DNA of 64,000 nucleotides. Origin: Thomasclavelia saccharogumia DSM 17460 (lineage in GTDB: Bacteria > Bacillota_I > Bacilli_A > Erysipelotrichales > Coprobacillaceae). Positions 1,381 through 18,225 of this stretch are shown one piece after another. Where the stretch lies: the NCBI RefSeq assembly GCF_000686665.1, contig NZ_JMLH01000001.1, positions 62,001 through 126,000 on the forward strand. Direction: 5' to 3'. Made by a program: the position numbers and the translations under genes. The notes beneath the pieces were generated by a model that searched no databases, had not been told where the DNA came from, and worked only from the letters and a program-made list of their open reading frames with translations. Position 1 is the stretch's first letter; each line of letters starts with the position of its first letter.

Positions 1381-2274
1381 ATGAAACGTCGAATAAATAA
1401 AAAAAGAGTTGCCTTTATAGCAGCTGTTTTTACAATCATTATTTCAATTATCATATACTTAATAATAAATATAATTTTTCTAATCAGTACACCAAATACA
1501 CCTACTGTTCAAAAAGCAAAGAAAGTTTCAAAAAAAGATCCTTTTACATCACTAAACTATTATTTACCTTCACAAAAAAAACGTTATGAAAATTATAAAA
1601 CTAAATATCCTGATTTATCAGATGAAGAAGTAGTTACCTATGTTAATATGAATTTAGATTATAATTTTTATGACCATATTATTATCCAGTCTAATCCTAG
1701 TGCTTTAAATACACTTGTAAATAAATATTATCGTTTAGATAACAATTTTTCTCCCTCAGATCTCGTCTATATCAATGATGGCTATACTAGTACTAATGAT
1801 CCCGCCTATAAATATCGCAAACATCAAATGTCAAGCGTTGTTTATAACGATTTTGTAGCATTAAGAAACAAATGCCGTGAAAGAGGAATAAGTTTTTATG
1901 TTGTTAGTGGCTATCGCTCAACACTAGCACAAGAAAAAAGTTATAATCATATGGTTAATACCTTTAGTGTTGATGAAGCTGATAAAACATGTAGTCGTCC
2001 TGGTCACAGTGAACATACCTTAGGTTTAGCATGTGATGTGGCTTTAGATAATTATTCTTTTGAAACTATCGTTAATCATCCTGATTACCAATGGTTTGCT
2101 GAAATAATATCAGATTATGGATTTATTATACGTTATCCTGAGGGTAAAGATTCTTTGACTGGTTATAGTTATGAGCCTTGGCATCTTCGCTATTTAGGAA
2201 AAGATTTAGCTAAGAAAGTAACAAAGAGTAAACTTACTTACGATGAATATTATGCTCGTAATTTTATGTCTTAA
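1381..2274 (+). CDS. VanY-type D-alanyl-D-alanine carboxypeptidase (peptidase M15B)
   Basis: A 297-residue membrane-anchored zinc peptidase that trims the terminal D-Ala from peptidoglycan stem peptides. A single N-terminal transmembrane anchor covers about residues 10-35, followed by a linker and the M15 domain at about 150-285. The metal and catalytic motifs are complete: SGYRS at 176-180, SEHTLGLACD with H212 and D219, and EPWH with E265 and H268. A GAGGT-containing SD precedes the ATG. VanY proteins contribute to glycopeptide resistance only alongside vanHAX-type genes, which are absent here, so a wall-maturation role is the better guess. Confidence 0.9.
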   Translation: MKRRINKKRVAFIAAVFTIIISIIIYLIINIIFLISTPNTPTVQKAKKVSKKDPFTSLNYYLPSQKKRYENYKTKYPDLSDEEVVTYVNMNLDYNFYDHIIIQSNPSALNTLVNKYYRLDNNFSPSDLVYINDGYTSTNDPAYKYRKHQMSSVVYNDFVALRNKCRERGISFYVVSGYRSTLAQEKSYNHMVNTFSVDEADKTCSRPGHSEHTLGLACDVALDNYSFETIVNHPDYQWFAEIISDYGFIIRYPEGKDSLTGYSYEPWHLRYLGKDLAKKVTKSKLTYDEYYARNFMS

Positions 2275-2364
2275 ATGACTTATATATAGATTTTAGTAAT
2301 TTTAATATGTAATATTTAACGATTTTCTTGTATAATAATGTTATTGAAAGAAGGAGTATATTTA

Positions 2365-2856
2365 ATGAATACTGTTTTTAATATCTTACCTTTTTTGGTA
2401 TTTTTAGCTTTATTATGGTTTACATACATAAACATTTCTTATGGCATAATCGTATATCGCACCACTAAAGATGATCATACTTTGACTTCATGTCTTAGTG
2501 AGTCTGGGAAATATTTTTACATAGCTTTATTGATTTTTTATGCTTTTACATTTTGTATTTGTTTAACCCTTATAATCTTAAATGTTATTTCTAATAATTT
2601 AGATGGAGCATATGCACCATTAAACATCCTTACTATTGTAACATTAGCTGTCAGTATTTTATTACAACAAATTATCTACGTTGGTCATCGCCAAATGATG
2701 ATTGGTAAAATTAAATTAGACTATCGTAAAATAAAACGTGTTACATATCCTAAAGCAAAAAAACTTAGATTTGTTTATGGACAAAAATCATTTGAAACTT
2801 CTCTTCGTTTTATAGATGATTTTAAATTAAAAAAAGCATTGCAAAAAACTAGATAG
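2365..2856 (+). CDS. Small membrane protein of unknown function
   Basis: I do not recognise the family. The protein has three hydrophobic segments (about residues 5-25, 50-75 and 83-102 from the chosen start) and a basic cytosolic C-terminal tail rich in Lys, Arg and Tyr, resembling short stress-related membrane proteins. The start is placed at 2365 because AAGGAG lies 8 bases before it. An in-frame ATG at 2338 has no SD and overlaps the TATAAT of a probable promoter at 2331-2336. It follows the VanY-like gene by about 90 bases with its own promoter, and ends at a bidirectional terminator shared with the convergent LtaS-like gene. Confidence 0.7.
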   Translation: MNTVFNILPFLVFLALLWFTYINISYGIIVYRTTKDDHTLTSCLSESGKYFYIALLIFYAFTFCICLTLIILNVISNNLDGAYAPLNILTIVTLAVSILLQQIIYVGHRQMMIGKIKLDYRKIKRVTYPKAKKLRFVYGQKSFETSLRFIDDFKLKKALQKTR

Positions 2857-2904
2857 TAATATAAAAAGAATAATAATATGTTCCCAACAAAAAAATTATT
2901 CATT

Positions 2905-3008
2905 ATTTTTTACTTTAGGATAAGCGTAAAAAAGAGATTTTCAAATAACTATATCAGTTAATTTGGAAATCTCTTTATTTTTATACTATTTATAATCAAG
3001 TAAAAACC
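2905..3008. repeat. Intergenic two-stem element, copy A, acting as bidirectional terminator
   Basis: The inner stem AAAGAGATTT / AAATCTCTTT (2931-2976) is followed by T-runs on both strands. The outer ends form an imperfect inverted repeat (TTTTTACTT..GGAT at the left; ATAATCAAGTAAAAACC at the right). The same ends recur in copy B at 55590-55700, also between convergent genes. It terminates the gene at 2365 and the LtaS-like gene. Confidence 0.65.
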
Positions 3009-3011
3009 GAA

Positions 3012-4544
3012 TTAGTTCTTATTACTTTTTGTCTTATACGAAGAAAATCTTTTACTTTTCTTTCTTTTAGTTTCGCCTACTAAACGTTCTTGATAATAAC
3101 TAGAATATTTTTTAATTTCAGAATTAATTTTATTAAACCCATATTGTTCAATAAGTGTTTTCTTATTTGAAAATAAATTAGTACCTAATCCAAGTCTATC
3201 TCCATCAATATCGATTCCTAACGAAGCAAGAATAGTAGGATACATATCAAGAATTGAAAATTTTCGATTTTTTGTATTCTGTTTATTAACTGCACTATTT
3301 ATAAAACAATTATATGGTGTTCGTAAATAATTTTTATCTACATTTTTAAAGTACTTCTCTGCCATACTTTTATGATCACCAGTAATAACGATTGTAGTAT
3401 TTTCATACCACGACTGTTTTTTGCACCATTCAATGAAATCACTTACTTGTTTTGATTGACAAGAAATAACATTAGCATACTGGTTTTTATGAATAGATTT
3501 ACAATATGGACAAACATACCCATCAGGTGTATGCGTATCAATTGTTACCAGTTCAAAATTAAAGGGCTTATTATTAGAGGCTAATTCCGTGAGTTCTTTT
3601 CTAGCAAACTTAAATAATTTTGCATCCTCAATTCCCCAAAAAACAAAATAATCATCTGGAATATAACCATTTTCTTTGAAATAATTATAATCAGCTATTT
3701 TATAATTACCATGTTGTCGATAAAAATTAGATGTACAAGCAAAATCACCATCACTACCCATCATGATTTCATTGACATATCCTTGCTTTTCTAATACTTC
3801 TCCAATCGTATAAACCCCTGGTAAAAAACTTGAAGTATGGGTATATGATTTTCCATTAAAAGGGATTAAAAGCGGTATACCAGATTCTTGACCAACCATT
3901 GAAGCAACAGTCCACTGCGTTCCTTCCAATGTCATACTTCCACCAATTAAATCATTATGTGAAAAATTAATATTATCCTTTGCAAGCGATTGCAATTCTG
4001 GCATATAACTTGTCTGTTGAATTCCACCAGATTCGATATCTAAATAACTGTTTTCCATTGATTCCAAATAAATATGGATCAGATTTCTTTTTTGCTTTGG
4101 GTAAGTTATTTTTACTTTATTAAAATCAACGTAATGATCTTCATACAGAGTGGTCTTTTTAATCATATCAAATAGATAACCAACTATTTGATAATTATAT
4201 AATGCATAAACTATTGCCATTATAATCACTATCCAACCAATCGTTAATATATGATCGGTCAAAAATAAATGCAACGTTTTAAACGGTAAATTAAATAAAA
4301 TAATTTCTGTAACCATTACAATAACAAAACTAGCTGGTACAGTTTTTATAAACCAATCTGCATAAATGCCACCGTCAGTTCCATCAGCAGGTGCTTTTAA
4401 ATGAAAAATCATTTGATTTAAGGTCTTTACAGAAAACGTTCGATTACCCCAAATAATTGAAAAAACAGCTAATAATCCCACAAATATTAATACCGACCCC
4501 ACAACTTCTTTAATTGTTATCAATTTAAAAATATAATTTAACAT
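3012..4544 (-). CDS. LTA synthase family sulfatase-fold phosphoglycerol transferase
   Basis: A 510-residue membrane enzyme of the LtaS/MdoB family, expected to transfer glycerol-phosphate from phosphatidylglycerol to a surface glycolipid or glycan outside the membrane. It has about three N-terminal membrane segments (12-33, 68-88, 98-118) rather than the five of classical LtaS. The extracellular sulfatase domain (about 152-460) keeps the metal and nucleophile residues: E161 in IYLES, T209 in EGTQWT, and D390-H391 in TGDHKS. A CPYC pair near 345 plus a Cys near 362 is unusual and could hold a disulfide or metal. The C-terminus is strongly basic. The short membrane part makes a variant polymer substrate possible. 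Confidence 0.85.
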   Translation of the reverse strand: MLNYIFKLITIKEVVGSVLIFVGLLAVFSIIWGNRTFSVKTLNQMIFHLKAPADGTDGGIYADWFIKTVPASFVIVMVTEIILFNLPFKTLHLFLTDHILTIGWIVIIMAIVYALYNYQIVGYLFDMIKKTTLYEDHYVDFNKVKITYPKQKRNLIHIYLESMENSYLDIESGGIQQTSYMPELQSLAKDNINFSHNDLIGGSMTLEGTQWTVASMVGQESGIPLLIPFNGKSYTHTSSFLPGVYTIGEVLEKQGYVNEIMMGSDGDFACTSNFYRQHGNYKIADYNYFKENGYIPDDYFVFWGIEDAKLFKFARKELTELASNNKPFNFELVTIDTHTPDGYVCPYCKSIHKNQYANVISCQSKQVSDFIEWCKKQSWYENTTIVITGDHKSMAEKYFKNVDKNYLRTPYNCFINSAVNKQNTKNRKFSILDMYPTILASLGIDIDGDRLGLGTNLFSNKKTLIEQYGFNKINSEIKKYSSYYQERLVGETKRKKSKRFSSYKTKSNKN

Positions 4545-4658
4545 TTACATCATCTCTCTATTTATATCACGATATCTAATATACATACATTTTGTTAACT
4601 AAATATGTCTATCCAAAAATTTTAGTGCCAAACTATATTATTAATACTATTTAGAGCG

Positions 4659-4841
4659 TTATTGAATTATGACTTTTTTTAATTTTTTTTCAAATTCACG
4701 ACGTGAAAACATCACTATAGCTCCACACCCTAAACATTTAATTTTAATATCAGCACCCATTCTTATAATCTGCCATTGGTTCGATTTTTTACATGGATGC
4801 TGCTTTTTCATTTCCACAATATCATTTAAATTATAATTCAT
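4659..4841 (-). CDS. DUF951 family protein
   Basis: A 60-residue protein matching the DUF951 family: a short basic protein with DIVEMKKQHPC near the N-terminus and CLGCGAIVMFSRREFEKK near the C-terminus. The Cys pair and conserved HPC suggest a small metal or nucleic-acid-binding fold; function is not established. The start at 4841 is preferred because GGAG lies 7 bases upstream and the gene then begins one base after the folD stop. A start at 4853 would overlap folD. It is translated from the dusB-folD operon. Confidence 0.82.
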   Translation of the reverse strand: MNYNLNDIVEMKKQHPCKKSNQWQIIRMGADIKIKCLGCGAIVMFSRREFEKKLKKVIIQ

Positions 4842-4842
4842 T

Positions 4843-5691
4843 TTACTCTCCATTCCGTTTATAAAAAGCTTCTAGTGTATTTTGCATTAACATCGTTATC
4901 GTCATTGGTCCAACTCCTCCAGGAACTGGTGTAATAGCCATTACTCTATCTTTTACATCTTCAAAATCTACATCACCACATAATTTATTATTTTCATCAC
5001 GATTGATTCCTACATCTAAAACAACAGCTCCATCTTTTATATATTCATGATTAAAAAACTTAGGTTTACCAATTGCCGCAATCAAAACATCAGCTCGAGA
5101 ACATATTTTTTTTAAATCTTTAGTCTTACTATGAGCTATTGTCACAGTCGCATCTTTTTGTAAACATAATAAAGATATTGGCTTGCCAACGATATTACTA
5201 CGCCCAACAACAACAACCTCTTTACCTTTCAAATCATAATTGATCTCATCTAACAATACTAACATTCCTTTAGGCGTACATGGTACAAATGACTGCTGTC
5301 CTAAAAATAATCTTGCTGCATTTTGAGGATGAAAACCATCTACATCTTTATTTGGATCAATAGCTTTCAACACTTTTTCTTCTTCAATATGTTGTGGTAA
5401 AGGCAACTGTACAAGAATACCGTCAACACTATCATCATTATTTAGACGGCTAATTTCTGCTAATAACTCTGCTTCACTAAATGTATCATCATGTTTTAAC
5501 ACTTCTGATTCAATTCCAATATAAGCACATCCCCGCTCTTTATTTCTTACATATGTCTTACTTGCCTGATTATCACCTACTAAAATTACAACCAATTTTG
5601 GCAATCGGGAATAATTTTCTTTAATAGCTGCAACTTCTTCTTTCAACTGCTCTTTTATTTTCATTGATATCTCTTTTCCGCTAATGATCAT
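4843..5691 (-). CDS. folD: Bifunctional methylenetetrahydrofolate dehydrogenase / methenyltetrahydrofolate cyclohydrolase
   Basis: A 282-residue cytosolic FolD that interconverts 5,10-methylene-THF and 10-formyl-THF, feeding purine and formyl-Met synthesis. Visible signatures are YVRNKERGC with the catalytic-lysine region, ILVQLPLPQHI, the NADP-binding VVVGRSNIVGKP and the C-terminal TPVPGGVGPMT. Length is normal. A GGGGGA SD lies 6 bases before the ATG. It lies 48 bases downstream of dusB and abuts the DUF951 gene, so the three are probably one transcript. Confidence 0.97.
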   Translation of the reverse strand: MIISGKEISMKIKEQLKEEVAAIKENYSRLPKLVVILVGDNQASKTYVRNKERGCAYIGIESEVLKHDDTFSEAELLAEISRLNNDDSVDGILVQLPLPQHIEEEKVLKAIDPNKDVDGFHPQNAARLFLGQQSFVPCTPKGMLVLLDEINYDLKGKEVVVVGRSNIVGKPISLLCLQKDATVTIAHSKTKDLKKICSRADVLIAAIGKPKFFNHEYIKDGAVVLDVGINRDENNKLCGDVDFEDVKDRVMAITPVPGGVGPMTITMLMQNTLEAFYKRNGE

Positions 5692-5739: not shown

Positions 5740-6732
5740 CTACATGCAACAATTAGATATCCCATCAAGATATAACTTATATTCAGCTAAAATCGTCTCT
5801 AACTGCTCGTATGTATCAATTTTTGATAGTTCATTTTTTACTCTTGCTGATGACTTCAATCCTTTTATATACCATGGCGCATGTCCTCGCATTTGAAACA
5901 TCGCAACCTTTTCTGGTTCTATTTCCATTAATTTTTTTGCATGAGCTAAACATTGAGCGATTTTTTCTTGATATGTTGGTTCCAAAATTTCTTCACCGGT
6001 TTTTAAAGATTCAACAACTTGTTTTATCAACCAGGGATTTCCTAGAGCAGCACGACCAATCATCACAGCATCCACATTTGTTTGGGCTAACATTCTTTTA
6101 GCATCATCAACAGATTTAATATCACCATTGCCAATCACAGGGATTTTTACTGCTGCTTTTACGTCAGCAATAATACCCCAATCAGCCTTCCCTTCATACA
6201 TCTGCGATCTCGTTCTTCCATGGACAGCAATAGCACTAGCCCCTGCTTTTTCAACTAACTCTGCAATTTTTACAGCATTGATATGTTCTTTATCAAAACC
6301 ACTTCTAATTTTAACAGTTACTGGTTTAGAAACATTTTCAACAATTCCTTTAACGATTTCATATATTTTATCAGGATAAAGTAATAACTTACTTCCGGCT
6401 TCAGCCTTTAATACTTTATTAACTGGACATCCCATATTTATATCAATAATATCACAATTAGAATGCTGATCAATAAATTTAGCAGCTTTGACCATAGTTT
6501 CTACTTCACCACCAAATAATTGAATACTAACAGGATGTTCTCCTTCATCTACTTGAAGCATCTCTATCGTTTTAGCATTACCGTAACAAAGAGCTTTATC
6601 ACTAACCATCTCTGAATAAACTAATCCTGCTCCAAAATCTTTAATTATTTTTCGAAAAGCCATATTTGTAATTCCCGCCATCGGTGCCATAACAACAGGA
6701 TTTTCAATCTCAACATTTCCTATTTTAAACAT
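5740..6732 (-). CDS. dusB: tRNA-dihydrouridine synthase (DusB family)
   Basis: A 330-residue flavoenzyme that reduces uridine to dihydrouridine in the tRNA D-loop. It has the TIM-barrel start NPVVMAPMAGITN, the catalytic-cysteine motif DINMGCPVNKV at about residue 100, IAVHGRTRSQMYEG for FMN binding, and NGDI/IGRAALGNPW near the phosphate site. The C-terminal helical RNA-binding domain is present. GAGGAG precedes the ATG. It heads the dusB-folD-DUF951 cluster. Placement near hslO and ftsH parallels yacF (dus) near yacC (hslO) in Bacillus. Confidence 0.95.
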   Translation of the reverse strand: MFKIGNVEIENPVVMAPMAGITNMAFRKIIKDFGAGLVYSEMVSDKALCYGNAKTIEMLQVDEGEHPVSIQLFGGEVETMVKAAKFIDQHSNCDIIDINMGCPVNKVLKAEAGSKLLLYPDKIYEIVKGIVENVSKPVTVKIRSGFDKEHINAVKIAELVEKAGASAIAVHGRTRSQMYEGKADWGIIADVKAAVKIPVIGNGDIKSVDDAKRMLAQTNVDAVMIGRAALGNPWLIKQVVESLKTGEEILEPTYQEKIAQCLAHAKKLMEIEPEKVAMFQMRGHAPWYIKGLKSSARVKNELSKIDTYEQLETILAEYKLYLDGISNCCM

Positions 6733-6821
6733 TTACTCACTCCTCATGCAGTATCTTAACAATTATTCTAAAAAAAAGAAATATAAATGTATAAAAATTT
6801 TTACTCTGTTTATAATATTTA

Positions 6822-6945
6822 CAGATAACTTACACTTCCCCGCTATTTTCCTCCCCGAAATAGAAGTAAGTTATCGAGTTAGTTATATTCCTAAATATGT
6901 TGGTAAACCAACTAAAAAGAAAGGCATCCCCCGCCTTTCTTTTTA
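6822..6945 (+). ncRNA. Candidate small RNA with three C-rich loops
   Basis: TATAAT at 6811-6816 lies just before an outer 10-bp perfect stem (6824-6833 / 6866-6875). Inside are a stem CTATTT / AAATAG (6843-6848 / 6858-6863), a C-rich bulge ACTTCCCCG and a C-rich loop TCCTCCCCG. A terminator follows (6916-6925 / 6933-6942) with loop ATCCCCC and a T-run. All C-rich parts are unpaired, as in Firmicutes regulatory RNAs that pair with Shine-Dalgarno sequences. The terminator also serves hslO on the other strand, and the -35 box is weak. On the minus strand the structure would sit in the dusB leader. Confidence 0.42.
6914..6945. terminator. Bidirectional terminator between hslO and the dusB-side RNA
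   Basis: Stem AAAGAAAGGC / GCCTTTCTTT with a 7-base loop and T-runs on both strands. It lies 15 bases past the hslO stop. Confidence 0.85.
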
Positions 6946-11902: not shown

Positions 11903-14107
11903 TTATTTCAACAATTCACTTTTTACTATTTTGATTACTACAATGCTAATATCATCGAGATTATTTTCTTCTAAAACCCGATCCATTAATAACGTTGCTG
12001 CCTCTTGAGGATGCATATGATTGATTATCTTAATATTTCTTTTAATAATCTGTTCAAAATTACTACCAGTTCCATCACTAGACATAATGACAATATCATT
12101 ATCTTTTAATAACATTTCATAACTAGACATCTTTAATTTAGAAACGATTCCTACCGGTAATGAATTAGTTGCAATTTTTTCTACAGTTCCATTACGAATA
12201 TGATAGCTGGGATTAGCCCCATATTTGATTAATTTCATTTTCGCATTCGCTAAATTTATATGACACAAATCTAATGTCGTAAACATATCATTATGATTTT
12301 TTATTTTTAATAACGCATTTATAGAATCAATAGTATCTTTTAAACTAATACCATTTAAAATTAATTTAGATAGTACTTCCAAAGTCAATTTACTTTCTGC
12401 TGCTGCCATCTTTCCCTGACCCATTCCATCACTCAAAGCTAAATAATGTAGATTATCTTGATGAAAAGCACTAAAAGAATCTCCACAATTTAAGGGCTCT
12501 AATGCATATTGCTGTAACCCAAACTGTAAAGAATAGTTTGGCTGGTGCTTTAAAACCACTGAAGTATAACCTAAATAATGCATTGCATCTTTGATTGAAA
12601 TAATTTCTAATGATTCGTTTAAATAGCTTTCAATAATTGGCACTAATTCATTGATTACATCTTCTTTATTTATATCCATTAAACCTATTTCCAAGGTATA
12701 AACATCTAAAGATATTTGATGTTTATACAAATATGTAATATTAAATTGATACCCTAGTAAATGTTCCTTCAGCTGTTGATCACCAAACGGTGCCTGTTCT
12801 AAAGAATTACTAAAATTGTCAAACACTTCACTCAATAAAGAAAATTCATAAAACAAATCTCTTTTTAAATGCAGATTTTCCTGATTTACTCTTTTTATCT
12901 TTTCATAACTTTCTTTATACTCATTAATTCCTTTTAAAAATTTATCAGGACTAATACAATTACTATTTATATATTTTAAATCCTCTTCACTATATTTAGA
13001 TTTAAAGCCCTTATTAATAAGTTTACCTAATCTACCCACACTGCCATCTTGATAAAAACATAAATCTCGACTTGGACAATGCAAACAGACATCTTCATAT
13101 ACATAACCAACAAATTCTCCAACATTCACATTATGATTAGCTTCTTGAAAAATATTAGTTAATTGTTTAAATAACGAGGCAAATGTATTGGCTCGCTGAA
13201 TCAATTTATTACGACTTGTAATATTTTTATAGTCTTCATTAAGCAATTTAGGGCGACGTTTGAAAGTAGGAATAAACAAAAATAAAGCTGCACTTACTAT
13301 AATAATAAAATTATGATAGTAATAGTCATAGTTAATAAAAAATGGAAGAACTAAATGACTTAATATATATGTTGATGAACAAGTTAATTTATTTTTAGGG
13401 TTGTACATAAAGAAGATACTGAAAGGAAGGATCAACGATAGTATTTCATCTTTAAGTAAGGGATCAATAAACATTAAAATAATTGATATATATAAAATCG
13501 CTGGCATCGTACTATTAATACCTAAATAGTACGTACTTAATAATAAAAAGAAGCGTAGTAATATCATCATGTATAACTGATTAACTTCTACCAATGAAAC
13601 AATAGCTAACATTATCATCACGGAAAGAATTATCATCCGTTTATTCGTATATACTTCAATTGTATTATGGATAAAGACGGGAACTACTTCTAAGCATAAT
13701 AAACTATGTATTAATGTAAAGGATAAAATAACTAGTACTTCTATGTAGTTATAATTATATATGTAAAGAAAGATTAAACTTACTAAAGTAACTACAAAGG
13801 CCAAGTATTTACTTTTAATAAATTTAAAATGCATTAGTACCTGCATTAGTATTACACTTGTTAAGGAGACTAACAATAACATGTAATTTTCATAAGATAG
13901 ATAGGTTATTAATACTAAAGCACTCATATATACGATCAGATGTCGATATCCACATAAAAATGATATTACTAGCATCGGAATTATAAAACAAAGCGATGTA
14001 TTATATATTTTTACTAAACCTAAAAAGAGGGTTAAACAAAAAATTGTAATATAAGTCATCCCAGCATTTTTTATTTTTACTTTATTTTTTTCTACTGACA
14101 AATCCAT
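11903..14107 (-). CDS. spoIIE: Stage II sporulation protein E (PP2C phosphatase)
   Basis: A 734-residue polytopic protein. In spore formers it dephosphorylates SpoIIAA to activate sigma-F in the forespore, and also acts at the polar septum. About ten membrane segments fill roughly residues 20-290. A regulatory middle region contains a cysteine group (CLHCPSRDLC) near 350-365. The C-terminal PP2C domain (about 530-734) has the metal motifs LSDGMGQG and MSSDGTGSNF. ATG 14107 is preferred, with GAGG 9 bases upstream; a GTG at 14116 overlaps the SD. Its presence shows a sporulation programme. Confidence 0.95.
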   Translation of the reverse strand: MDLSVEKNKVKIKNAGMTYITIFCLTLFLGLVKIYNTSLCFIIPMLVISFLCGYRHLIVYMSALVLITYLSYENYMLLLVSLTSVILMQVLMHFKFIKSKYLAFVVTLVSLIFLYIYNYNYIEVLVILSFTLIHSLLCLEVVPVFIHNTIEVYTNKRMIILSVMIMLAIVSLVEVNQLYMMILLRFFLLLSTYYLGINSTMPAILYISIILMFIDPLLKDEILSLILPFSIFFMYNPKNKLTCSSTYILSHLVLPFFINYDYYYHNFIIIVSAALFLFIPTFKRRPKLLNEDYKNITSRNKLIQRANTFASLFKQLTNIFQEANHNVNVGEFVGYVYEDVCLHCPSRDLCFYQDGSVGRLGKLINKGFKSKYSEEDLKYINSNCISPDKFLKGINEYKESYEKIKRVNQENLHLKRDLFYEFSLLSEVFDNFSNSLEQAPFGDQQLKEHLLGYQFNITYLYKHQISLDVYTLEIGLMDINKEDVINELVPIIESYLNESLEIISIKDAMHYLGYTSVVLKHQPNYSLQFGLQQYALEPLNCGDSFSAFHQDNLHYLALSDGMGQGKMAAAESKLTLEVLSKLILNGISLKDTIDSINALLKIKNHNDMFTTLDLCHINLANAKMKLIKYGANPSYHIRNGTVEKIATNSLPVGIVSKLKMSSYEMLLKDNDIVIMSSDGTGSNFEQIIKRNIKIINHMHPQEAATLLMDRVLEENNLDDISIVVIKIVKSELLK

Positions 14108-14171
14108 TTCATTCACCTCGTACTATAAATTATATGAATTTATGATAAATAATTTGTCATTTTTTAAGTTC

Positions 14172-14308
14172 AATTAAAATAATCTAGTTAAATACGCTAT
14201 AACGAAGCAGATTTATTTGCAAAAATATTGAATTTATCAATATTTTTAAAACTGTATATATAAAAAAATGATTAAACAAAATTTTATTCTGAATTTATAC
14301 TCATACCA
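14172..14308 (+). repeat. Cassette repeat X, copy 0 (left remnant)
   Basis: This 137-base block aligns with 17758-17892 with about ten mismatches counted by eye. It contains the hairpin AAAAATATTGA / TCAATATTTTT, which reads as a plus-strand terminator, yet no plus-strand gene precedes it. It therefore looks like the 3' end of a lost ATPase cassette left of the first DUF4143 gene. Confidence 0.7.
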
Positions 14309-14551
14309 AAAAAATAAAAATAATTGTGCGATTTTTCACCAAAAAGGCTTTATTATTAAAGCTTTATTCATTATTTTGGATGTTTTTTATAGATGGTGTT
14401 AATTCATTAATAATTGAATAGTAAGTTTGTTTATGGGTTAGAAATGTTTTTGGTATAAAAGCAGCTTGGAAGTTTATTGACCAAAAATGATTTTTTTTCA
14501 ATTTTGGTCAATAATATGATATAATAGATATACTAAAGGAGTTGTTAATTT

Positions 14552-15751
14552 ATGAAGTTAATTAAACGAAAAGATTATTTAAATATTTTAATAAACGTTA
14601 AGAATACACCAGATATAAAAGTTATTACAGGAGTGAGGCGTTCAGGCAAATCAAAATTACTTCTTTCATTTATAGAATGGTTAAAAAAACAAGAACAGGA
14701 TTCTCATATTGTATATATTAATTTGCAAGAAACAGAAAATGAACAATTTTTAGAATATCATTGTTTGCATGATTACATTTTAGAACAATATGTTGAAGGC
14801 AAAAATAATTATCTTTTTATAGATGAAGTTCAATTATGCACACATTTTGAAAAAGCAGTAAATAGTATTCATGCTAAAGAAATATATGATATATATGTGA
14901 CAGGATCTAATGCTTTTTTATTAAGTAGTGATTTAGCAACTTTATTCACAGGAAGAACATTTACAATAGAGGTTTTTCCTTTTTCCTTTCAAGAGTTTCT
15001 TGTTTATTTTGATAGAGATGATACAGATCAGGCATTTAATGATTATTTAAGAATTGGTGGATTTGCTGGATCATATTTATATCACCAAATAGAACAAAAG
15101 TATGATTATATTCAAAAAGATGTTTATGAAACAATAGTGACACGAGATATTGTTCAAAAATATAAGATCAGAAACAAAGGCCTTTTTGAAAATTTAACAA
15201 ATTATCTTATTGACAACATCTCCAATTTAACATCATCTAGAAACATTACAAACTACTTAATTAGTAATTATGATAAAGTTAGTCACAATACGATTATCAA
15301 TTATATAAAATATCTTTGTCATGCATTTGTATTTTATAGAGTAAAGAGATTTGATATAAAAAGGAAAAAGTATTTAGCTACTGAACAAAAATATTATCTT
15401 GTTGATCATTCTATTAAATATGCAACTCTTGGAATTAAGAATCAAGATTTAGGTAGAACATTAGAAAATATTGTTTATATAGAGTTATTAAGAAGAAGAT
15501 ATGAGGTCTATGTTGGTAAGCTTTATAAGAAAGAAATTGATTTTGTAGCATTAAAAAGAAATGAGCAAATTTATATTCAAGTTTCAACGTTCTTAGAAGA
15601 TGAAAATACAATTGATAGAGAAGTAACACCTTTGTTGAAGATAAAAGATGCCTATCCTAAAATAATTATAGCGAGAACACATCAAGAAATGTATACGATT
15701 CAAGGTATAAAAGTTATAGATATTGCAGATTGGTTGATAAATAATAAATAG
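14552..15751 (+). CDS. AAA-family ATPase with C-terminal DUF4143 domain (cassette gene A)
   Basis: A 399-residue cytosolic protein. The N-terminal ATPase has Walker A GVRRSGKS at about 27-34, Walker B YLFIDEVQ near 92, a sensor-like VTGSNAFLLS near 128 and a TGR near 143. The C-terminal DUF4143 region (about 205-360) ends with EIDFVALKRNEQIYIQVS, resembling the core of PD-(D/E)XK nuclease folds. Function of the family is not settled. It has an AAAGGAG SD and a TATAAT at about 14518. It resembles gene B (16241) clearly but loosely, while their flanks are nearly identical. Base composition is as AT-rich as its surroundings. Confidence 0.85.
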   Translation: MKLIKRKDYLNILINVKNTPDIKVITGVRRSGKSKLLLSFIEWLKKQEQDSHIVYINLQETENEQFLEYHCLHDYILEQYVEGKNNYLFIDEVQLCTHFEKAVNSIHAKEIYDIYVTGSNAFLLSSDLATLFTGRTFTIEVFPFSFQEFLVYFDRDDTDQAFNDYLRIGGFAGSYLYHQIEQKYDYIQKDVYETIVTRDIVQKYKIRNKGLFENLTNYLIDNISNLTSSRNITNYLISNYDKVSHNTIINYIKYLCHAFVFYRVKRFDIKRKKYLATEQKYYLVDHSIKYATLGIKNQDLGRTLENIVYIELLRRRYEVYVGKLYKKEIDFVALKRNEQIYIQVSTFLEDENTIDREVTPLLKIKDAYPKIIIARTHQEMYTIQGIKVIDIADWLINNK

Positions 15752-15770
15752 GTTAAAAGTTAAATTCATT

Positions 15771-16040
15771 GATATTAGCAATGTCGTAAGTTAATATTCA
15801 AGCAGGTTCAGAAAGATATTGACTACGGTCGATATCTTCTTTTTTATATGTAATATTTCGTTGAATTATTTTTATCATAATTCATATCAAAAAAATATCA
15901 AAATTATTCCTAAATAATATGAATTAATAAAGATAGAATAAAATAGAAAAGATTGAAATTGCTTGTTTTTAAAGGAGTTTAAAGTCAAATAATATGTATT
16001 TGATAATTAAAATAATCCAGTTAAATACGCTATAATGAAA
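15771..16040 (+). repeat. Cassette repeat Y-X, copy 1 (downstream of gene A)
   Basis: About 270 bases matching 17516-17790 nearly base for base in long runs, including the terminator hairpin, a purine-rich AAAGGAGTTTAAAG segment and the closing AATTAAAATAATC.AG. After about 16040 the match to X ends, so X is truncated here. Confidence 0.75.
15813..15845 (+). terminator. Terminator of DUF4143 gene A
   Basis: An 11-bp stem AAGATATTGAC / GTCGATATCTT closes a TACG tetraloop and is followed by a T-run. The second copy at 17568 keeps the stem with G-T wobble changes. Confidence 0.8.
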
Positions 16041-16105
16041 AAATTTTTTTGGTAAAAAGAAGCTTTTTCCCATTCAAAAACATTTACACAATTAATGAAA
16101 ATGTG

Positions 16106-16154
16106 ATTTAACGTTACCATTTTTAAAAAAAACAAAAAAATAGCAACGTTAAAT
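16106..16154 (+). promoter_or_regulatory. Large palindrome upstream of DUF4143 gene B (repeat Z1)
   Basis: ATTTAACGTT at 16106-16115 is mirrored by AACGTTAAAT at 16145-16154, with further T/A pairing inside. It lies just upstream of an extended -10 promoter (TGTTATAAT, 16176-16183), where an operator would sit. A decayed copy lies at 18044-18085. Confidence 0.5.
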
Positions 16155-16204
16155 CATTAAAATAAAAAACTATGTGTTATAATATGAATGGTGATATGAG
16201 ATCT

Positions 16205-16228
16205 ATGCATTATAAATTCGAGAGGTGA
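16205..16228 (+). CDS. Possible 7-codon leader ORF before DUF4143 gene B
   Basis: ATG-CAT-TAT-AAA-TTC-GAG-AGG-TGA encodes MHYKFER. It has its own SD-like GGTGATATGAGAT. The same motif (GGTGATATAAGAT) recurs 36 bases later as the SD of gene B, and the mini-ORF stop codon overlaps it. This could couple translation, or it may be a chance duplication. Confidence 0.3.
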   Translation: MHYKFER

Positions 16229-16240
16229 TATAAGATTATT

Positions 16241-17473
16241 ATGAAATTATATAAAAGAGAAAACTATTTAAAAAAGATAAGAGGCTTTTATGAAGCAGAA
16301 GATATTATCAAAGTTATTACAGGAGTTCGTAGATGTGGTAAATCATCATTAATGCAAACTATAGCTGAAGAACTTATATCTAATGGTATTTCAAAAGAAA
16401 ATATTATATATATTGACTTAGATAAAAGAGAATTTAGAAAAATAAAAGATGCTGATCAATTAGAAATAGTAATTGATAAAAAAATAGAAAATATTGAGGG
16501 ATTAAAATATCTTTTTATAGATGAGGTACAAAATGTAAATGGATTTGAAGAAGTTTTAAATGGATTTAGAAATGAGGGGGAATACTCAATCTTTATAACT
16601 GGGTCTAACTCATATTTGTTAAGTGGAGAGCTGATAACAAAATTGACTGGGCGTTATATAGAATTTGAAATGTTCACTTTAAGTTTAGAAGAATATATAG
16701 ATATGAAGAAGTTTTATAATAAAACTGTTAGTTCTAATCTTTTAGAAGAATTAAACTCATATATATTAGAAGGTGGATTTCCCCGTACTGTACAAATGGA
16801 TAATTTGGCTGATAAAAGGACTTATACACAGAGTGTCATAAAAGAAATATTTGAAAAAGATATAAGAAGGAGAATAAAAGTAAGAGATAGAGATGCATTT
16901 GAAATAGTGAAAAATTTTATAATCAATAATTATGGGTCTTTGATTAGTATTAATAGTATTGTTAATTCATTGAGAAAGACAGGAACTTTAATTAGTAAAG
17001 CAACAGTCACTAGATATATTCAAGCGCTTTTAGATGCTAAAATTATTTATGAATGTTATAGATTTGATATGAAATCTAAAAAAGCAATCAAGGGAGAAAA
17101 GAAGTATTATATAGCGGATTTAAGTTTTTATTATGCACTTAATACAGATAATCAAATGAATTATGGACCATGTCTAGAAAATATTGTATATATTTACGCA
17201 AGAAGTCAAGATTATTCAGTAAGCATTGGAAGAATTGGTAAATTAGAATGTGATTTTATTTTACGTGATAGAGAATTAAATTATTCTTATGTTCAAGTAT
17301 CATATACAATAATGTTAAATAAAGAAACAGAAGATAGAGAGTATAAACCACTAGAACAAATCAAAGATAATTATCCTAAATACGTTGCAACGACGGATTA
17401 TTTACTACAAAAAAGAAATGGAATCAAACATATTAATATCATAGATTTTATGAAAAACAATGAACTATTTTAA
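16241..17473 (+). CDS. AAA-family ATPase with C-terminal DUF4143 domain (cassette gene B)
   Basis: A 410-residue paralogue of gene A with the same order of parts: Walker A GVRRCGKS at about 28-35, Walker B YLFIDEVQ near 90, FITGSNSYLLS near 125, LTGRYIEFEMF near 140, then the DUF4143 region with ECDFILRDRELNYSYVQVS near 340. It starts with MKLYKRENYL against MKLIKRKDYL in A. Identity to A is moderate, well below that of the flanking DNA. The SD is GAGAGGTGAT. The gene has its own promoter and terminator. Gene B ends at a terminator repeat copy and is the last intact gene of the array. Confidence 0.85.
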   Translation: MKLYKRENYLKKIRGFYEAEDIIKVITGVRRCGKSSLMQTIAEELISNGISKENIIYIDLDKREFRKIKDADQLEIVIDKKIENIEGLKYLFIDEVQNVNGFEEVLNGFRNEGEYSIFITGSNSYLLSGELITKLTGRYIEFEMFTLSLEEYIDMKKFYNKTVSSNLLEELNSYILEGGFPRTVQMDNLADKRTYTQSVIKEIFEKDIRRRIKVRDRDAFEIVKNFIINNYGSLISINSIVNSLRKTGTLISKATVTRYIQALLDAKIIYECYRFDMKSKKAIKGEKKYYIADLSFYYALNTDNQMNYGPCLENIVYIYARSQDYSVSIGRIGKLECDFILRDRELNYSYVQVSYTIMLNKETEDREYKPLEQIKDNYPKYVATTDYLLQKRNGIKHINIIDFMKNNELF

Positions 17474-17515
17474 TCACTACGAGATTAAAATAGTTCATTT
17501 GTATAAACTTAATGA

Positions 17516-17892
17516 AATTCATTGACAGAAATAAAGTTATACGATAATATTCAAAAATGGGTTCAGAAAGATATTGGCTATGGTCGGTATCTTCTTTTTA
17601 TATGTAATATTTCGCTGAATTATTTTTATCATAATTCACACCAAAAAATACCAAAATAATTCATGATTTATATGAATTAATAAGTACAGAATAAAATAGA
17701 AAAGATTGGAATTACTTGATTTTAAAGGGGGGTAAAGTTAAATAATCTGTATTTAATAATTAAAATAATCTAGTTAAATACGCCATAATGAAGCAGATTT
17801 ATTTGCAAAAATATTGAATTTATCAGCATTTTTAAAATTGTACATATAAAAAAATGATTAAACAAAATTTTATGATGAACTTATGCTCATAC
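17516..17892 (+). repeat. Cassette repeat Y-X, copy 2 (downstream of gene B)
   Basis: Y2 (17516-17757) matches the block after gene A. X2 (17758-17892) matches the block at 14172-14308. Together they define a repeat unit of the form Z - ATPase - Y - X. Confidence 0.75.
17568..17600 (+). terminator. Terminator of DUF4143 gene B
   Basis: Stem AAGATATTGGC / GTCGGTATCTT with loop TATG, then T-rich. Base changes relative to the copy at 15813 keep the pairing. Confidence 0.8.
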
Positions 17893-18225
17893 AAAAAATA
17901 AATATGAAATTTTTATTGATAAACTAAAAATAATAAAAAAGACATCTGTTTTAATTTATAAGTAATAGAAAATAAGTATTATTTAATAAATTTCGATGTT
18001 TATAAAAAATTTAAAAATATTTATATAATTAATAATAAAAGCTATTTAACGTTGCCAATTTTAAAAAATAAAAAACAGCAATTAAAATACTGTTAGTTCC
18101 TATTTGACCTTACGCATATCATATTTAACAGTCAAATATCTATTGAAAAAATTTTGTTTTTAAATCTTTTATATCACTTATTATCAAGTAAAAACCTAAA
18201 TGACTTAAAGTTGGTGTTTAATACA
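17893..18225. other. Gene-free tail of the ATPase array with decayed repeat Z2
   Basis: No ORF is seen. TATTTAACGTTGCC at about 18043-18056 with the following A-rich tract and CAGCAATTAAAAT matches the palindrome upstream of gene B, but the right arm is degraded and no ATPase follows. A right-half copy of the two-stem element (TTATCAAGTAAAAACC) ends at 18196. The stretch looks like the remains of a third cassette. Confidence 0.45.

What the first reader, a model, noticed from the sequence alone, without database searches (positions are those of the whole stretch)
14172..18085. Tandem DUF4143 ATPase cassettes whose flanks are far more conserved than their genes
Seen: repeat Y-X follows each ATPase gene, and a third X copy lies left of the first gene. 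X0 and X2 differ at about ten of 137 bases. Y1 and Y2 match in long runs including a terminator. The two proteins share motifs but are clearly divergent. A decayed Z palindrome lies right of the last copy with no gene. The unit reads Z-ATPase-Y-X with truncated units at both ends. Inference: recombination between conserved flanks swaps or loses ATPase genes, giving a variable cassette array.
Basis: partly seen in the sequence, partly recalled or inferred. Interest (0 to 1): 0.72.

Follow-up and report, generated by a model that had tools for sequence, protein, structure and literature searches.

The report
Defence-candidate ATPases reading their own promoters
Two neighbouring genes for an uncharacterised but very common class of suspected phage-defence ATPases each carry, in their own promoter, a long palindrome whose key letters can largely be predicted from a few amino acids in the protein, so these proteins very probably recognise and regulate their own genes; the repeated flanks that drew attention look like debris of local duplication.

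Summary
The repeats are real: X (14172-14325 / 17758-17911, 90-91%) and Y-X (15762-16057 / 17515-17811, 84%). They occur only at this locus in the genome. A sister species has the same site with the first ATPase (A1) only; two other species of the genus have an empty site. So the array is a recent, variable insertion between spoIIE and a GNAT gene. No example was found of a different ATPase between the same X/Y flanks. Between species A1 (97%) is more conserved than its flanks (80-93%), so 'conserved flanks, exchanged genes' is only partly supported.

The main result is the palindrome. Of 75 related DUF4143 ATPases, 65 have an odd-centred palindrome upstream (13 of 74 control genes): two half-sites around a constant 23-bp A/T-rich spacer, near the -10 box. 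A 4-letter half-site word varies between homologues and covaries with residues 230, 245, 246 and 249 of the protein. These lie in the winged helix; 245-249 open its recognition helix in a pLDDT 90 model. The learned code predicted 33.5 of 40 letters in ten unused loci (20.3 when permuted). These proteins (PADLOC candidate PDC-S01) very probably bind and regulate their own promoters. DNA binding and defence remain untested.

The parts
14187..18219 (.). Insertion relative to the empty site of related species (between spoIIE and a GNAT acetyltransferase gene)
   Evidence: G003: window 14186 and 18220 align to positions only 58 bp apart; G005 about 65-75 bp apart
14172..14325 (+). X0 repeat; its first ~16 bp resemble the native spoIIE-side sequence
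   Evidence: 90-91% to X2; empty-site comparison
14475..14513 (.). A1 cognate palindrome (operator): half-sites TATTGACC, 23-bp A/T spacer, GGTCAATA
   Evidence: Exact match in the window; half-sites identical in G007 and G028, spacer changed at 10 of 23 positions in G007
14520..14525 (+). -10-like box TATAAT of the A1 promoter, close behind the palindrome
   Evidence: preferred position relative to the dyad in homologues
14552..15751 (+). A1: AAA_14 ATPase - winged helix - DUF4143, PADLOC PDC-S01
   Evidence: Pfam, PADLOC E 9e-146, AlphaFold2 pLDDT 90.3
15278..15304 (+). Codons of A1 residues 243-251, N-terminal part of the recognition helix (S244 H245 N246 T247 I249)
   Evidence: Covariation with half-site letters; helix 245-257 in model
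15239..15241 (+). Codon of R230, covaries with half-site letter at offset 12
15762..16004 (+). Y1 repeat with transcription terminator 15813-15838
   Evidence: 84.6% to Y2; hairpin plus T-run
16005..16057 (+). X1, truncated X copy
16107..16153 (.). A2 cognate palindrome (Z1): arms TTTAACGTTACC, 23-bp spacer, one imperfect arm
   Evidence: same palindrome upstream of A2 homologues in other genera
16178..16183 (+). -10-like box TATAAT of the A2 promoter
   Evidence: 47-49 bp from the dyad in 13 of 18 A2-clade loci
16241..17473 (+). A2: second AAA_14 - winged helix - DUF4143 ATPase, PDC-S01
   Evidence: nearest relatives in Traorella (83%) and Longibaculum (80%)
17515..17757 (+). Y2 repeat with terminator 17568-17593
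17758..17911 (+). X2 repeat
18009..18087 (.). Z2: decayed copy of the A2 promoter/palindrome, no gene follows; absent in G007
   Evidence: 78% to 16072-16153; G007 lacks about 18004-18222

Best explanation
The locus is a recently inserted, variable array of two single-gene defence-candidate ATPases (AAA_14 - winged helix - DUF4143, PADLOC PDC-S01). Each ATPase recognises a long spaced palindrome in its own promoter through its own winged helix: residues 245, 246 and 249 at the start of the recognition helix and residue 230 read the four variable letters of each half-site. Bound as a symmetric dimer or larger oligomer, it most likely represses its own transcription until a trigger, inferred to be infection or an ATP/DNA-dependent rearrangement, releases it. 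A1 and A2 use different words, so they should stay independent. The X/Y repeats are products of local duplication and recombination around these insertions, not the functional core. Shown here by computation: the palindromes, their geometry, the protein-DNA covariation and its out-of-sample prediction, presence/absence of the array. Inferred: physical binding, oligomeric state, the direction of regulation, any role in defence.
For: Odd-centred palindrome in 65/75 A1/A2-clade upstream regions vs 13/74 control genes (score >=8); 50/75 vs 5/74 and 2.4% of dinucleotide shuffles (score >=10), even-centred 3/75; Fisher p 4e-15. Constant 23-bp spacer, variable half-sites; at offsets 12-15 the two arms are complementary in 92-100% of A1-clade loci vs 35-50% expected. 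Covariation, controlled for overall identity, 26 representatives <80% identical: DNA offset 14 with residue 246 r=0.95, 13 with 245 r=0.68, 12 with 230 r=0.71, 15 with 249 r=0.56 (residue 256 scores 0.57); the best column of each offset was reached by none of 500 permutations (all 43 sequences). Out of sample: 33.5/40 letters in ten unused loci vs 20.3 permuted and 22.5 for the commonest word. Residues 245-249 lie at the start of helix 245-257 of a winged helix (209-283), pLDDT 90.3. Preferred distance to a -10-like box: 47-49 bp from the dyad in 13/18 A2-clade loci, mostly 21-27 bp in the A1 clade. No excess of other sites for the A1 word in its genome: 5 vs 6 for the reversed control. Variable presence.
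Against: No binding or expression data exist. Direction of control is inferred from position only; in the A2 clade the palindrome lies upstream of the -35 region, where activation is also possible. Seven loci have a second cognate palindrome just after the gene, which simple autorepression does not explain. About 10 of 75 loci showed no clear site, some because of start-codon choice. Permutations do not fully model phylogeny. Three half-sites were read by eye and misassigned dyads were excluded by hand.
Confidence: 0.76

Rival explanations
1. The palindromes are the ends or target sites of a mobile cassette: the ATPase-nuclease acts on its cognate palindrome to move its gene, and P-gene-P and the X/Y arrays are insertion products.
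For: Seven of 75 loci carry a second cognate palindrome downstream (L057, L157, L176, L074, L189, L047, L141), in six of them within about 15 bp of the stop codon; 0.32 non-cognate hits expected against 5 counted at fixed geometry. The locus is an insertion with long direct repeats; solo A1-type palindromes stand upstream of A2-type genes in T. cocleata, G148 and Longibaculum.
Against: Over 90% of loci have no downstream copy; position is tied to the promoter; no solo sites in excess in the genome; no clean target duplication at the palindromes was found; DUF4143 here shows QxS where PD-(D/E)XK nucleases usually have ExK.
Confidence: 0.12
2. One reading: homologous recombination between conserved X/Y flanks exchanges ATPase genes, giving a variable cassette array. 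This concerns the origin of the array and could be true alongside the best explanation.
For: Presence/absence differs between species; A1 and A2 come from different clades but sit in similar flanks; a second array with repeated flanks and different ATPases in G170.
Against: No different gene found between the same flanks anywhere; A1 is more conserved between species than its flanks; only one genome per species could be compared.
Confidence: 0.25
3. The palindromes are RNA elements (attenuators or small-RNA terminators) rather than protein binding sites.
For: They are inverted repeats upstream of genes.
Against: They lie upstream of the -10 box, so are not in the expected transcript; loops are long, A/T-rich and not paired; half-site letters covary with protein residues; no Rfam match.
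Confidence: 0.03

Closest known systems
PDC-S01 (PADLOC phage-defence candidate; AAA_14 PF13173 + DUF4143 PF13635, COG1373)
   Same: Both proteins match PDLC04787 at E 9e-146 and 3e-136. PDC-S01 is described as an ATPase fused to a PD-(D/E)XK-type domain and as the fourth most common defence across prokaryotes, with experimental validation pending for most PDCs (PMC12988326).
   Different: No description of a cognate promoter palindrome or of DNA recognition by these proteins was found in the held literature.
Self-repressing regulators of defence systems (restriction-modification controller proteins, BrxR/CapW, RptR)
   Same: A defence locus whose own product or neighbour binds an inverted repeat in its promoter (general knowledge; RptR, PMC12255303, title and abstract seen only).
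   Different: There the repressor is a dedicated small protein; here the DNA reader appears to be built into the ATPase itself, and the recognised word changes from homologue to homologue.
Cdc6/Orc1 origin-binding AAA+ proteins and STAND/NLR ATPases
   Same: AAA+ module followed by a winged helix; best Foldseek matches include 2qby, 2v1u and NLR resistosomes.
   Different: Whole-chain TM-scores only about 0.3-0.4; sites are promoter palindromes, not origins; DUF4143 C-terminal domain instead.
REP/RAYT, IS200/IS605 and integron cassettes
   Same: Gene next to a family-specific palindrome.
   Different: No transposase or integrase; palindrome in the promoter; one site per gene in most loci.

Membership tests
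PDC-S01 / DUF4143 ATPase | AAA_14 P-loop ATPase domain (Walker A GxxRxGKS, Walker B DE) | tested here: met
   Pfam AAA_14 E 2e-34 and 3e-34; invariant G27, G32, K33, S34, D91, E92 in 72 homologues
PDC-S01 / DUF4143 ATPase | C-terminal DUF4143 domain | tested here: met
   E 1.9e-18 and 1e-11, above the curated cut-off
PDC-S01 / DUF4143 ATPase | PADLOC model match | tested here: met
   PDLC04787 over the full length
PDC-S01 / DUF4143 ATPase | Antiphage activity | not testable with these tools
   Needs plaque assays; reported as not validated for most PDCs
Autoregulated gene with operator | Conserved inverted repeat in the promoter of the gene | tested here: met
   65/75 vs 13/74 controls; preferred -10 distance
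Autoregulated gene with operator | DNA-binding domain in the gene product that specifies the site | tested here: met
   Covariation and out-of-sample prediction; winged helix in the model. Computational only
Autoregulated gene with operator | Binding and change in expression | not testable with these tools
   Experiment needed
Mobile element / gene cassette | Filled and empty sites in relatives | tested here: met
   G003 and G005 empty, G007 one gene, G000 two genes
Mobile element / gene cassette | Defined ends at both sides of each unit | tested here: inconclusive
   Cognate palindrome on both sides in 7/75 loci only; X/Y repeats unique to this locus
Mobile element / gene cassette | Recombinase or transposase | tested here: not met
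   No such gene in 14172-18225; only the two ATPase genes lie there
   X/Y found in one other species only, with the same A1

The most novel reading that the evidence does not exclude
DUF4143/PDC-S01 ATPases are sequence-specific DNA-binding machines with a rapidly diversifying, readable specificity code. The cognate palindrome is not only an operator but the site where the ATPase-DUF4143 complex acts (arming, cutting or self/non-self discrimination, or moving its gene), so these very common genes form a new class of site-addressed defence or mobile systems.
Probability: 0.2. Interest if true: 0.85.

Novelty: new variant of a known kind. Interest (0 to 1): 0.64.

Why it matters
PDC-S01-type ATPases are reported to be among the most abundant defence candidates in bacteria and archaea, but what they recognise is unknown. 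A specific DNA site for each protein, with a residue-to-base code that can be tested by simple binding and reporter assays, gives a concrete handle on this family. It also suggests a defence-candidate ATPase that carries its own promoter reader with diversifying specificity, which could let paralogues coexist without cross-talk.

Tried and rejected
Rfam scan: no known RNA. NCBIfam: no match. Plasmid and phage collections: only weak gene-level matches, no flank matches. A1 palindrome in viral contigs: none. X/Y as dispersed repeats: rejected, only at this locus. The Y-like match in G018 (74%) follows an unrelated ABC gene and was left as weak A/T-rich similarity. X-copy history: three sites support X0/X2 orthology and three support within-species similarity, so gene conversion cannot be resolved. 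Covariation in the A2 clade alone (18 sequences) is underpowered. More distant DUF4143 clades (about 40% identity, L199-L205) do not show this geometry. Within-genome paralogues use different words in 7 of 8 genomes, but random pairs differ in 91%, so this is not evidence by itself.
Full report
Observation. The repeats described are present. X0 (14172-14325) and X2 (17758-17911) are 90-91% identical; Y1X1 (15762-16057) and Y2X2 (17515-17811) 84%, including matching terminators. The two genes encode 399 and 410 aa proteins with AAA_14 and DUF4143 domains, 39% identical, both matching PADLOC's phage-defence candidate PDC-S01. A decayed copy of the second gene's palindrome lies at 18009-18087. 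In the 3.14-Mb genome the repeats occur only here; the genome has six DUF4143 matches.

History of the locus. In sister species G007 (spoIIE 99% aa) the site reads spoIIE - X - A1 - Y - X; its contig continues into DNA matching the right end of the window's insertion and stops next to the GNAT side, and no A2 homologue above about 37% was found in that genome. In G003 and G005 spoIIE and the GNAT gene lie about 60-75 bp apart at the alignment breakpoints; G001 and G002 have unrelated genes there. So about 4 kb (14187-18219) is an insertion, with A2 gained in G000 or lost in G007. The first 16 bases or so of every X copy resemble the native sequence next to spoIIE in G003 and G001, so X copies look like duplicated left junctions. 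Between G000 and G007, A1 is 97.2% identical, spoIIE 97.5%, X0 93%, the A1 leader 83% and Y 80%. The title's contrast holds only for the within-window paralogues; it reflects that A1 and A2 belong to old, separate clades (nearest relatives in other genera, 75% for A1, 83% for A2) while the flanks were duplicated recently.

The palindromes. Upstream of A1 lies TATTGACC-N23-GGTCAATA (14475-14513), upstream of A2 TTTAACGTTACC-N23-(imperfect arm) (16107-16153). The A1 half-sites are unchanged in G007 and in G028 of another genus although 10 of 23 spacer bases changed in G007; the A2 palindrome recurs before A2 homologues in Traorella, Longibaculum and others. I collected 75 non-redundant homologues with upstream DNA. 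An odd-centred palindrome was found in 65 of 75 against 13 of 74 other genes of the same loci; at a stricter score 50 of 75 against 5 of 74, 2.4% of dinucleotide shuffles, and 3 of 75 for even-centred ones. Inverted repeats with odd spacers vastly outnumber even ones. Aligned on the dyad, the A1 clade shows constant T16, A18 and A-rich spacer and four variable letters at offsets 15-12; in these the two arms match each other in 92-100% of loci against 35-50% expected. A -10-like box follows at 47-49 bp from the dyad in 13 of 18 A2-clade loci and mostly at 21-27 bp in the A1 clade. The site is thus a promoter element, not part of the expected transcript.

The code. Using all pairs of A1-clade proteins below 80% identity and removing the effect of overall identity, the letter at offset 14 correlates with residue 246 (r 0.94; K with C, N with A, V with T or A, S with G), offset 13 with 245 (H or R with C, D with G, N with A or T), offset 15 with 249 (G with T, I with G) and offset 12 with 230 (R with C; N, S or K mostly with A). 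With 26 representatives below 80% identity these correlations are 0.95, 0.68, 0.56 and 0.71; the best column of each offset was reached by none of 500 permutations; for offset 15 the best column is residue 256 (0.57), with 249 next. The table was then applied to ten loci not used for it (eight from other families of the class, two from IMG/VR contigs), taking the top-scoring dyad without regard to the prediction: 33.5 of 40 letters matched, against 20.3 on average when predictions were permuted and 22.5 for always guessing the commonest word. For L258 the second-ranked dyad, not the first, has the expected form. In an AlphaFold2 model (pLDDT 90.3) residues 209-283 form a winged helix, with helices 229-239 and 245-257; the specificity residues are at the start of the recognition helix and of the preceding helix. 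No homologue has a solved structure (only a weak partial match); fold matches are to Cdc6/Orc1, DnaA, clamp loaders and NLR ATPases at TM 0.3-0.4.

Interpretation. The simplest reading is that each ATPase binds the palindrome in its own promoter through its own winged helix. Genome-wide the A1 half-site pair is not in excess (5 sites with up to one mismatch, 6 for the reversed control), so this is self-regulation rather than a regulon. In the A1 clade the inner promoter is covered, which favours repression; in the A2 clade the site is just upstream of the -35 region and activation is possible. What releases or uses the bound ATPase is unknown. Binding, oligomeric state and defence are inferred.

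Loose ends. Seven loci have a second cognate palindrome after the gene, in six starting within about 15 bp of the stop codon, and in T. cocleata, G148 and Longibaculum an A1-type palindrome stands before an A2-type gene. These keep a mobile-cassette role open. G170 has another array of different ATPases preceded by a repeated intergenic segment, so repeated flanks in such arrays are not unique to this window.

Literature. In the held library one paper contains DUF4143 and none PF13635; PDC-S01 appears in three, described as an ATPase fused to a PD-(D/E)XK-type domain, very common, with validation pending for most such candidates (PMC12988326, PMC13356809). No report of cognate palindromes was found; subscription papers and preprints were not searchable, so novelty is provisional.

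Noticed in passing
L181 (G170:C149) 779-888, 3808-4018, 6638-6854: A second array: A2-type, another AAA ATPase and A1-type genes, each preceded by copies (77-96% identical) of one intergenic segment that includes a CCCCCCTATGGCACC stretch. It ends just before the A1-type palindrome.
   Followed up: partly
L033 (G000:C98) 1857-3376 and 3325-4863: Tandem duplication (77% nt) of a different DUF4143 ATPase gene in the window's own genome, one copy apparently truncated.
   Followed up: no
L157, L176, L074, L189, L047, L141, L057: ATPase gene bracketed by two copies of its cognate palindrome, in six of them the second within about 15 bp of the stop codon.
   Followed up: partly
L066, L064, L055, L050, L051, L053: Other DUF4143 clades have different, compact upstream palindromes (AGTTTTGCGGTTNNNAACCGCAAAACT; TATTTTATCAGTTATAACTGATAAAATA), suggesting the rule extends beyond the A1 and A2 clades.
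   Followed up: no
L115 (G001) 2482-3348 and L117 (G002) 1485-3327: The spoIIE-GNAT junction carries unrelated inserted genes in other species of the genus, so it looks like an insertion-prone site.
   Followed up: partly
window 11903-14116: The spoIIE-like gene left of the array starts with GTG; the insertion lies about 60-70 bp from its start, so it may affect its promoter.
   Followed up: no
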